NCBI GenBank assembly: GCA_022819985.1
Contig: JAJEGH010000013.1
Location: forward strand, 62,001 to 126,000
DNA from: Alphaproteobacteria bacterium
GTDB taxonomy: Bacteria; Pseudomonadota; Alphaproteobacteria; Bin65
Reading direction: 5' to 3'
DNA length: 64,000 nt
The notes beneath the pieces are model-generated. The model worked only from the letters and a program-made list of their open reading frames with translations, made no database searches and was not told where the DNA came from. Shown here piece after piece: positions 40,029 to 60,933 of this stretch. How positions within the stretch are numbered: position 1 is the first letter of the stretch; each line of letters starts with the position of its first letter. Position numbers and translations under genes: made by a program.

Positions 40029-40225
40029 GCAGCCATATCCCCCTCCCCTTGGGGGAGGGGCTAGGGGAGGGGTCGTCCGTTGGCGCGCCGATGTCGCCTC
40101 TGGCAAGACTCCGGCCGCCGCATACCCCTCCCCCTGACCCCCTCCCCCAAGGGGAGGGGGGAACCGTTGCTTTGTCTGTCGAAACCGACACACTGCTTTT
40201 CGCAGAGGAATCCAAGGGGGGAGGA
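40029..40225. repeat. Composite palindromic repeat element copy A (CCCCTCCCCTTGGGGGAGGGG ... CCCCTCCCCCAAGGGGAGGGG)
   Basis: Two G/C palindromes flanking a variable centre; reverse-complement homologue at 53385-53565. Confidence 0.9.
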
Positions 40226-53384: not shown

Positions 53385-53565
53385 GGATTACCCTGCGAAA
53401 AGCCGTGAATCGGACCAGACAGGCAAAGCAACACGTCCCCCCTCCCCTTGGGGGAGGGAGTCAGGGGGAGGGGTATGCGGACGTTGCTGCAGAGCGGGAT
53501 TCGGATGCCGGTGCGGCGCAAAACGACCCCTCCCCTAGCCCCTCCCCCAAGGGGAGGGGGATTCG
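53385..53565. repeat. Composite palindromic repeat element copy B, inverted relative to copy A
   Basis: ctgcgaaaag..caaagcaac..CCCCCTCCCCTTGGGGGAGGGAGTCAGGGGGAGGGGTATGCGG..ACGACCCCTCCCCTAGCCCCTCCCCCAAGGGGAGGGGG. Confidence 0.9.
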
Positions 53566-58500: not shown

Positions 58501-58812
58501 TCACGGAAATTGCGCCAATCCTCTGATCTTGGGTCGGACGATCTCGAAGGCGCGGTTGGGCTGGTCCGGACGCAGGTGCGACAGCGCGATGGGCCGTGCC
58601 GTCAAGTCCGCAAGTTGCAGCCCGACGGAGTTCGCCGCCTTCGGCACGAACACCGGCTGGAAATCGAACAGGCCGAAGTCCAGCCGGCCGGGGCCCGAGG
58701 CGCCGTCGTTGGCGGCGATCCGGCGAAACTCCAGTTCAAGTTCCCGGTCCTCCTTCCTGCCGCGGCTCTCGAAGATGACATGCACCGTCCTGCCGTGCTG
58801 CCCCTGTACCTC
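58501..58812 (-). pseudogene. C-terminal half of DUF3800 protein, separated by IS110 insertion
   Basis: EVQGQHGRTVHVIFESRGRKEDRELELEFRRIAA...VGLQLADLTARPIALSHLRP. Confidence 0.85.
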
Positions 58813-58888
58813 TCACAGCGCTTCAGCCGTTTTGGGGTGCAGACGTTGCTTAGCCATTTCTCCGACCTTGATCGCAGCAGTGCTGGCT

Positions 58889-58937
58889 GGCCATTGGCTT
58901 CGCCGGAGCGCGTGGCGCGGAGGCGAAGCCAATGGCC
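58889..58937. other. 16-bp perfect stem-loop in IS110 left end (GGCCATTGGCTTCGCC / GGCGAAGCCAATGGCC)
   Basis: Arms 58889-58904 and 58922-58937 are exact reverse complements. Confidence 0.9.
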
Positions 58938-58989
58938 GGGTGCCGCTCACCTGGACTCCCTGCCATCGTGGAAGTCCTGTCCATCGCGG

Positions 58990-59140
58990 ATGGGACGGGC
59001 CAAGGGATCGAGAGCAACCGAGCGCCCCCTGCGCCATGAGCACTTGGGGAGGACCTGTGCCTCGGTCCCTGGCCGCGATGGACGCCCGGTGGGGAGTTTG
59101 CGCCTTGAGCGCCAGTACAGGGACAGGCGGGCATCGTGGC
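58990..59140 (+). ncRNA. Candidate IS110 bridge RNA region (boundaries approximate)
   Basis: Non-coding left end upstream of tnp; two stem-loops holding segments matching the element's target (59054-59063) and donor end (59088-59097). Confidence 0.55.
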
Positions 59141-59173
59141 GGTCCGTTGGCACAAGGACGCGAAGGGAATGCC

Positions 59174-60427
59174 ATGGACATGTTTGAGTATTTTGCGGGG
59201 ATCGACTGGGGTTCGGAGACCCACCAGGTCTGCGTTGTCGACAGCGCTGGCGAGGTGTCGGCCGAGCGCGCCTTCGGTCACGGCGGAGCCGGCCTGGCGG
59301 AGATGGCGGCCTGGATCCGTGCCAGGACAAACGCCGAACCGCGAGCGGTCGGGGTCGCCATCGAGATCCCGCACGGTCCCGTCGTCGAGACCATGATGGA
59401 ACGCGGCTTCACGGTCCACTCGGTCAATCCGAAGCAGCTCGACCGTTTCCGCGACCGCTTCTCGCCGGCTGGCGCCAAGGACGATCGCCGCGACGCCCGC
59501 GTGCTCGCCGATGCCCTGCGGACCGATGGACATGCGTTCCGGCGTCTGAACCCGGCGGCGCCGGAGATCGTCGAGCTGCGTGAGTGGTCGCGGATCGCCA
59601 GCGACCTGACCTGCGACAGGACCCGGCTCGTGAACCGGGCCCGCCAGCAGCTCTGGCGCTACTATCCGCAACTCCTCAAGGTCGAAAGCGATCTCACCAG
59701 GGCCTGGATCCGCGAACTCTGGTGTCTTGCGCCGACGCCCGCAAAGGCGCAGCGCGTCCGCGCCGCCACCGTCGCCAAGGTCCTGAAGCGCCATCGGGTG
59801 CGCCGGATCGATGCCGAAGCCGCGCTCCGGATCCTGCGCGAGCCGGCGGTGTCCGTCGCGCCCGGCACGACCGAGGCCGCGGTTGCCCATATCGAGGTCG
59901 TCTTCTCGCAGCTTGCCGTCATCGCGCAGCAGATCGCGAAAGCCTATGGCAGGCTCGACCGTCTGAGCGCGACGCTGTCCCGGCCGGCGGCCTCCCCGGA
60001 GGACGAGCCGGGAATAGATGCGCAGCGTGACGTGGAAATCCTGAGCTCGCTTCCCGGCGTCGGCAGGATCGTCCTCGCCACGCTGCTCGCAGAAGCACAC
60101 GATCCTCTGCGCCGGCGAGACTATCAGGCCCTGCGATGCTTGTCCGGCGTCGCTCCCGTGACCAAGCGGTCCGGCAAGTCGCTGATCGTCATCCGCCGGC
60201 TCGCGGCTCATAACCGGCTCCAGGACGCCGTCTACCACTGGGCCGGGGTGGCCATACAGCGCGACCCCGTCAGCAAAGCGAAATACGCCGCGCTGCGCGC
60301 CCGCGGGCATGGTCATGCCCGTGCGCTTCGAGGGGTCGCCGACCGTCTGCTCGGCGTCGCCTGCGCGATGCTCGAAAACCAGACCGTCTTCAATCCCGCC
60401 CGCGCGAGACAAGCCCATGCAGCGTGA
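59174..60427 (+). CDS. IS110-family transposase (DEDD/serine recombinase type)
   Basis: YFAGIDWGSETHQVCVVDSAG; SLPGVGRIVLATLLAEAHDPLRRRDYQALRCLSGVAPVTKRSGKS. Confidence 0.93.
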   Translation: MDMFEYFAGIDWGSETHQVCVVDSAGEVSAERAFGHGGAGLAEMAAWIRARTNAEPRAVGVAIEIPHGPVVETMMERGFTVHSVNPKQLDRFRDRFSPAGAKDDRRDARVLADALRTDGHAFRRLNPAAPEIVELREWSRIASDLTCDRTRLVNRARQQLWRYYPQLLKVESDLTRAWIRELWCLAPTPAKAQRVRAATVAKVLKRHRVRRIDAEAALRILREPAVSVAPGTTEAAVAHIEVVFSQLAVIAQQIAKAYGRLDRLSATLSRPAASPEDEPGIDAQRDVEILSSLPGVGRIVLATLLAEAHDPLRRRDYQALRCLSGVAPVTKRSGKSLIVIRRLAAHNRLQDAVYHWAGVAIQRDPVSKAKYAALRARGHGHARALRGVADRLLGVACAMLENQTVFNPARARQAHAA

Positions 60428-60504
60428 CGCACGAGCCACGCAAGGTGCCCGGCACGCATACTCGCGCGTGCCAGAACCCTCTTTACAAATGGTGGGGAGT
60501 CCTC

Positions 60505-60933
60505 CCCGCTCAGCATGGCGTGCAACTGCTCCATGCAGAAACGAAGCGCGACCCGGTAAGGGTTCCGCGTATCGGCATATCTCGCGCGCAGGCCGGACTT
60601 GTCGATCACGGCGGCAAAAATCTTCATGGGGGCCGCTTCGACCAGGCGGTTGAGGCCTTCATAGAACCGTTCCCGCAATTCCCGGTCGGTCAAAAGGACC
60701 GCGAACGGCCCCTTGCTCTTGCGGATGTCGTGTTCGTGCAGCACGACGGCATCGTGCCCCCAGACGCCGAACTTGAAACTCTGAACGCCGGGAACGATGC
60801 CAGCGATGTAGTCGGTCTTGCGCATGGCGCAGAAGACCAGGGCGAAGACCGGGTATTGCGGATCGATGGCGACAAGACCGTGATCGCCACTCTCGTCCGC
60901 GTAAACCACGAATTCCGAGAAATCCGACAACAC
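60505..60933 (-). pseudogene. N-terminal half of DUF3800 protein interrupted by IS110
   Basis: MLSDFSEFVVYADESGDHGLVAIDPQYPVFALVFCAM...YRVALRFCMEQLHAMLSG. Confidence 0.85.

What the first reader, a model, noticed from the sequence alone, without database searches (positions are those of the whole stretch)
58990..59140. Candidate bridge RNA in the IS110 left end with guide-like matches to its own donor end and target site
(1) ggtggggagt at 59088-59097 is identical (10/10) to the last 10 nt of the element's right end (60491-60500), directly before the CCTC core. (2) CCTGTGCCTC at 59054-59063 matches the left target flank plus core, CCTGTACCTC (58803-58812), 9/10; the one difference would be a G-T wobble against the bottom strand. 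(3) gcgccttgag (59100-59109) is complementary at 8/10 positions to the left-end start ctcacagcgc (58812-58821). (4) The target segment lies inside a stem GGCC(A)AGGGA/TCCCTGGCC (58998-59007/59066-59074), and the donor segments lie inside CGATG..GCCC/GGGCATCG (59076-59087/59129-59136). Two guide loops, one for target and one for donor, is the architecture reported for IS110/IS621 bridge RNAs. A GGGGAG (59046-59051) could pair with CTCCCC right of the core, but it is short and G-rich, so weak. Because the target is reconstructable here, this element is a ready test case.
Basis: partly seen in the sequence, partly recalled or inferred. Interest (0 to 1): 0.85.

Follow-up and report, generated by a model that had tools for sequence, protein, structure and literature searches.

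The report
Bridge RNA of an IS110 element

Summary
The feature is real and is very probably an IS110-group bridge RNA. It lies upstream of an intact IS110 (DEDD) transposase gene. Eleven distinct sequences (window plus ten relatives) support a two-loop fold by compensatory changes (12 pairs changed on both sides; 0/500 shuffles). The joined flanks align ungapped (586 columns) with uninterrupted DUF3800 genes of two congeners, which puts the left boundary at 58804/58805, not 58812. The target is CCCC-TCCCC; "TGTACCTC" belongs to the element. Guides change together with targets and ends across relatives; one relative's right junction was predicted before it was read (6/7 plus a wobble). Other copies in this genome also sit at CCCC|TCCCC, mostly in a C-rich palindromic repeat. 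The core is inferred to be CC, not IS621's CT. Weak point: this copy's LTG pairs poorly with its left flank. Nothing was tested experimentally.

The parts
58803..58804 (+). core CC (left copy); target left of it is ...TGCTGCC
   Evidence: CC is shared by both ends in the relatives whose two ends were read; in the window alone CC and CT cannot be told apart because T follows at both junctions (CCT)
58805..60500 (+). IS110-group element between the cores (LE starts TGTACC, RE ends GGTGGGGAGT); 1,698 bp is removed when one core copy is kept, in frame for the host gene
   Evidence: joined flanks align ungapped over 586 columns with uninterrupted DUF3800 genes of two congeners; left and right ends recur at other sites in the same genome
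60501..60502 (+). core CC (right copy), followed by right target TCCCC
58889..58937 (+). large hairpin in the left end (16-bp stem), upstream of the guide loops
   Evidence: folds of some relatives also give strong hairpins of different sequence in this interval
58979..58996 (+). candidate 5' stem-loop of the bridge RNA (GUCCAUC-GCG-GAUGGGAC)
   Evidence: fold; comparable hairpins of other sequence read by eye in relatives; not statistically tested
58998..59012 (+). target-binding loop stem, 5' strand (pairs with 59061-59074)
   Evidence: helix 1: 96.5% of cells paired, 5 pairs changed on both sides
59022..59030 (+). left target guide (LTG) GCGCCCC-CU
   Evidence: position fixed by alignment A1; in relatives it tracks the left target (L049 8/9 plus wobble, L054 8/9 plus wobble, L052 7/9 plus 2 wobbles), permutation P 0.0006; weak in this copy (3/9 plus 1 wobble)
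59031..59043 (+). apical stem-loop of the target-binding loop
   Evidence: helix 2, compensatory changes; one C-A mismatch in this copy
59046..59052 (+). right target guide (RTG) GGGGAGG, complementary to core plus right target CC-TCCCC (60501-60507)
   Evidence: 7/7 here and at all 9 right ends read in this genome; relatives with GGGGGGG sit at CCCCCCC; L049 GAGGGG at CCCCTC; L054 GCGUUGG at CCAACGT; permutation P 0.0008
   Evidence: GUGCC is invariant in all 11 aligned sequences whatever the target
59061..59074 (+). target-binding loop stem, 3' strand
59075..59086 (+). donor-binding loop stem, 5' strand (pairs with 59126-59137)
   Evidence: helix 3: 90.9% of cells paired, 5 pairs changed on both sides
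59088..59097 (+). left donor guide (LDG) GGUGGGGAGU (the 9-nt GUGGGGAGU is the part that holds in relatives), followed by UU opposite the core
   Evidence: 10/10 with RE 60491-60500; L054 changes both guide and RE to GTAGGAAGT
   Evidence: helix 4, 100% paired, almost invariant
59115..59121 (+). right donor guide (RDG) GUACAGG, complementary to CC-TGTAC (58803-58809)
   Evidence: 7/7; relatives L047/L049/L052 have GAACAGG with LE CCTGTTC; 1/500 shuffles reach 7/7
59126..59137 (+). donor-binding loop stem, 3' strand
59174..60427 (+). IS110-family DEDD transposase (417 aa), intact
   Evidence: PF01548 E 2e-34, PF02371 E 1.8e-15; NF033542 'IS110 family RNA-guided transposase' above cut-off; D11, E64, D104, D107, S333-G334 invariant in relatives and in line with IS621 D11/E60/D102/D105/S241-G242
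60503..60933 (-). DUF3800 gene, N-terminal part, interrupted by the element (the rest lies at 58501-58804)

Best explanation
The left end of this IS110-group insertion sequence encodes a bridge RNA (about 58975-59142). Its first loop carries LTG 59022-59030 and RTG 59046-59052, which pair with the bottom and top strand of the target around a CC core. Its second loop carries LDG 59088-59097 and RDG 59115-59121, which pair with the joined right and left ends of the excised circle. The transposase, guided by this RNA, recombines circle and target at the core and so inserts the element at CCCC-TCCCC, a motif found in this genome's C-rich palindromic repeats. Shown by sequence: boundaries, fold, guide-end and guide-target covariation, recurrent target. 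Inferred from IS621: transcription, RNA-protein binding, circle formation, strand exchange and the exact core.
For: Intact DEDD transposase with the catalytic residues. Two-loop fold with 12 pairs changed on both sides, 0/500 shuffles; slid controls drop from 94% to 32-40% paired. Boundary fixed by the empty site. RTG complementary 7/7 at all 9 right ends in the genome. Guides change with targets: permutation P 0.0006 (LTG) and 0.0008 (RTG) over 11 elements. LDG/RE and RDG/LE change together. Microvirga copy: from guides GCGUUGG and GUAGGAAGU the right junction GTAGGAAGT-CC-AACGC was expected; GGTAGGAAGT-CC-AACGT was found. A bridge RNA in the left end with the target loop first matches the published IS110-group layout (PMC11208160, PMC11208158).
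Against: LTG of the window element pairs poorly with its own left flanks (3/9 here, 3-6/9 over eight sites). A single-sequence fold is not more stable than shuffles. No Rfam family matches. No promoter was found by the scan in the integrated form. No expression data. The permutation P values treat related elements as independent; distinct guide programmes number only about four.
Confidence: 0.93

Rival explanations
1. One reading: same bridge RNA, but boundary at 58812, target guide 59054-59063 and right donor guide 59100-59109.
For: The 9/10 match is nominally rare (2/500 shuffles), and CCCCTGTACCT is invariant next to all left ends in the genome, as a target would be.
Against: The ungapped empty-site alignment leaves no room for TGTACCTC; an intact paralogous repeat reads CATACCCCTCCCCC; relatives at unrelated sites also begin TGTACC or TGTTCC; the 59054 segment has the sense opposite to that expected of a right donor guide and stays GUGCC when LE changes to TGTTCC; 59100-59109 is in an apical hairpin.
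Confidence: 0.03
2. The left-end segment is a structured leader of the transposase mRNA (regulatory or protein-binding) and not a guide; the guide matches are coincidence in GC-rich sequence.
For: GC-rich region; RTG 7/7 alone is reached by 69/500 shuffles; no RNA evidence.
Against: Joint change of four guide segments with target and ends in relatives, including a confirmed prediction in Microvirga.
Confidence: 0.03
3. A variant of the best explanation: the core is CT, as in IS621, not CC; otherwise the same. (Its confidence is for this detail, not exclusive of the best explanation.)
For: In the window both junctions read CCT, so CT fits; LTGs end in CU in all aligned relatives; IS621 T9 is nearly invariant (PMC11208158).
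Against: In relatives the right junction reads AGTCC followed by C or A (AGT-CC-CCCCC, AGT-CC-CCTCC, AGT-CC-AACGT), so no CT is shared by both ends; RTGs and RDGs end in GG, complementary to CC.
Confidence: 0.12

Closest known systems
IS621 bridge RNA (IS110 group, E. coli; PMC11208160, PMC11208158)
   Same: DEDD-Ser recombinase, bridge RNA in the left end, target loop then donor loop, LTG/RTG/LDG/RDG order and strand, LTG of 9 nt, apical stem-loop between the two guides of each loop, insertion into palindromic repeats
   Different: Longer transposase (417 vs 328 aa chain in 8wt6), core inferred as CC not CT, 7-nt RTG, contiguous 7-nt RDG, different sequence and target
ISEc21 seekRNA (IS110 family; PMC11187229)
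   Same: Upstream non-coding region; segments matching the two target strands in the IS110 order
   Different: That work describes a short seekRNA defined by its target matches; donor-loop pairing is an essential part of the case here
REP-targeting IS110 elements ISPpu9, ISPpu10, ISPa11, ISRm19 (PMC1525189)
   Same: IS110-family elements inserted at a fixed place in palindromic repeats
   Different: The repeat here is a different, C-rich one (ACCCCTCCCCCTRACCCCCTCCCC); relationship of the transposases was not tested

Membership tests
IS110 group of the IS110 family | DEDD RuvC-like domain plus Transposase_20 domain with catalytic Ser | tested here: met
   with residues from PMC11208158
IS110 group of the IS110 family | Long non-coding region upstream of tnp (left end), short right end | tested here: met
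   LE 369 nt, RE about 73 nt
IS110 group of the IS110 family | No long sub-terminal inverted repeats | not tested
   not searched systematically
IS110 group of the IS110 family | Insertion without target duplication beyond a short core | tested here: met
   ungapped empty-site alignment, only CC(T) shared
IS110-group bridge RNA | Two stem-loops with internal guide loops, conserved fold | tested here: met
IS110-group bridge RNA | 5' side of each loop pairs with bottom strand, 3' side with top strand, core included | tested here: met
   LTG pairing weak in the window copy
IS110-group bridge RNA | Target loop covaries with insertion site, donor loop with element ends | tested here: met
   about four distinct guide programmes
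IS621-like subgroup | CT core dinucleotide | tested here: not met
   relatives support CC; CT is typical of IS621 and its relatives and is not taken here as defining the whole IS110 group
IS110-group bridge RNA | RNA is expressed and bound by the transposase | not testable with these tools
   no expression or binding data
IS110 group of the IS110 family | Circular intermediate with junction promoter | not tested
   TTTACA in the right end lies at a plausible distance from the junction, but no convincing -10 was seen by eye
IS1111 group | Bridge RNA in the right end | tested here: not met
   guide RNA lies upstream of tnp; right end only about 73 nt

The most novel reading that the evidence does not exclude
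A clade of IS110 elements with a CC core and largely G/C guides aimed at C-tracts or C-rich palindromes, in which a single A/G change in the right target guide has moved the element from CCCCCCC to CCTCCCC and let it multiply in its host's repeat family, with target choice carried mainly by the right guide.
Probability: 0.45. Interest if true: 0.5.

Novelty: new member of a known kind. Interest (0 to 1): 0.42.

Why it matters
It adds a well-supported natural bridge RNA with its guides, empty site, several insertion sites and a natural retargeting series resolved. A CC core and a 7-nt right guide, if confirmed, would widen the range of natural cores known for bridge recombinases. It also shows that reading boundaries from one copy can mislead guide assignment.

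Tried and rejected
Rfam search: nothing at E up to 1. Viral contigs with the protein and with a donor-loop pattern: nothing usable. Sigma-70 promoter and terminator scan: nothing. Single-sequence fold: not significant, so the structure rests on covariation. Protein search of 385 same-class genomes: only the own genome at the strict cut-off; the RNA model then found three more in the class set and one in the phylum set: three with C-rich guides; the fourth (L062) and the similar R. sullae copy L057 have RTG GUUGCGG but no clear ends and were left out of the test. L046 was left out because its LTG is deleted; L039 and L040 were left out of the guide-target test because the contig ends in or near the left end. 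The CC versus CT core cannot be settled from the window alone. The raw count of CCCCTCCCCC in the genome (73) is not above its reversed control (87; that control also fits the repeat), so the repeat was counted with a longer pattern (16 vs 0). The guide strings used were picked by hand from the alignment, not by an automatic rule.

Full report
What is there. The window holds a complete IS110-family element with an intact 417-aa transposase at 59174-60427. It matches PF01548 and PF02371 and the NCBIfam model for IS110 RNA-guided transposases above its cut-off. D11, E64, D104, D107 and S333-G334 are invariant in the seven transposases aligned and correspond to the IS621 residues D11, E60, D102, D105 and S241-G242 (alignment; residues as given in PMC11208158).

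Boundaries. The genome carries further left and right ends of the same element, mostly at contig edges, 99-100% identical: eight left ends and nine right ends could be read, this copy included. The element interrupts a DUF3800 gene. When the flanks are joined so that only one CC is kept, the joined sequence aligns without a gap over 586 columns (87-88% identity) with uninterrupted DUF3800 genes of two congeners. The pre-insertion site was therefore TGCTGCC-CC-TCCCCGC, and TGTACCTC belongs to the element. An intact paralogous repeat at 40102 in the window (GGCAAGACTCCGGCCGCCGCATACCCCTCCCCC...), set beside the left flank of another copy (GGCAAGGCTCCGGCCGCCGCATACCCC|TGTACC), says the same. The congeners themselves have a slightly different base sequence at the site (CCTCTCCTC in place of CCCCTCCCC), so the original letters are inferred from this copy's own flanks.

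Core. In the window CC and CT are both possible, since T follows CC at both junctions. In relatives only CC is shared: left ...CC-TGTACC or CC-TGTTCC, right ...GGTGGGGAGT-CC followed by C or A. Right target guides and right donor guides end in GG. The core is therefore inferred as CC, unlike the CT of IS621.

Fold. The window and ten distinct relatives from genome contigs and plasmids were aligned. The structure of two stems and two apical hairpins has 94.1% of cells paired, 12 pairs changed on both sides and a covariation score of 0.318 against 0.167 in shuffles (0/500); sliding the partners by 1-3 columns drops pairing to 32-40%. The structure was drawn from this same alignment, which favours it on the pairing percentage; the both-sides changes are the stronger evidence. 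A single-sequence fold is not distinctive.

Guides. By position in this fold: LTG 59022-59030, RTG 59046-59052, LDG 59088-59097, RDG 59115-59121. RTG GGGGAGG is complementary to CC-TCCCC at all nine right ends of this genome; relatives with GGGGGGG sit at CCCCCCC, those with AGAGGGG at CCCCTCC. LTG GGUGAUC-CU of the S. meliloti copy matches its flank GGTGATC-CC, and LTG UUAUGCA-CU of the two Microvirga copies matches TTATGCA-CC. Over 11 elements the matches exceed permuted pairings (LTG P 0.0006, RTG P 0.0008), although relatedness and only about four distinct programmes limit these values. The Microvirga right end was predicted from its guides and then found as GGTAGGAAGT-CC-AACGT, 6/7 plus a wobble for the target side and 9/9 for the conserved donor guide. 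Right donor guide GUACAGG goes with CCTGTAC, GAACAGG with CCTGTTC.

59054-59063 is the linker and stem start of the target loop; its GUGCC is invariant in all aligned sequences whatever the site. 59100-59109 is part of the donor loop's apical hairpin, and its 8/10 match is ordinary (79/500 shuffles). The 10/10 left donor guide and the weakly regarded GGGGAG were right.

Target. The genome has a C-rich palindromic repeat, ACCCCTCCCCCTRACCCCCTCCCC, 16 strict copies against 0 for the reversed control. Of the right flanks read, eight of nine continue into such C-rich repeat sequence, as do several of the left flanks; the window copy, in DUF3800, does not. Insertion of IS110 elements in palindromic repeats is known (PMC1525189, PMC11208160).

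How it most likely works. By analogy with IS621 (PMC11208160, PMC11208158), the RNA holds the excised circle by its donor loop and the target by its target loop, and the transposase exchanges strands at the core. Anatomy, fold and covariation are shown here; transcription, protein binding, circle formation and strand exchange are inferred.

Weak points. The window's LTG pairs with its own left flanks at only 3-6 of 9 positions, so left-side recognition here is largely the four Cs. Possible reasons are mismatch tolerance or recent retargeting through RTG; this is not resolved.

Noticed in passing
window 40040-40160 and 53439-53560; G000 genome-wide: C-rich palindromic repeat (ACCCCTCCCCCTRACCCCCTCCCCCAAGGGGAGGGGG type), 16 strict copies in the genome, the usual landing site of this element.
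   Followed up: partly
window 58889-58937: 16-bp hairpin in the left end upstream of the guide loops; folds of some relatives also show strong hairpins of different sequence in this interval.
   Followed up: partly
L046 (S. fredii pNGR234b): Copy with the left target guide deleted and the transposase match broken into pieces, so probably inactive.
   Followed up: no
L038, L042, L043: Relatives 74-94% identical at the protein level in MAGs labelled Acidobacteria, Binatota and Gammaproteobacteria, which suggests spread between phyla or misbinning.
   Followed up: no
L054: The Microvirga copy carries an IS3-family transposase gene between the two parts of its IS110 transposase gene.
   Followed up: no
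L057 and L062: Two copies with right target guide GUUGCGG and no clear right end or intact left junction; candidates for another target programme.
   Followed up: partly
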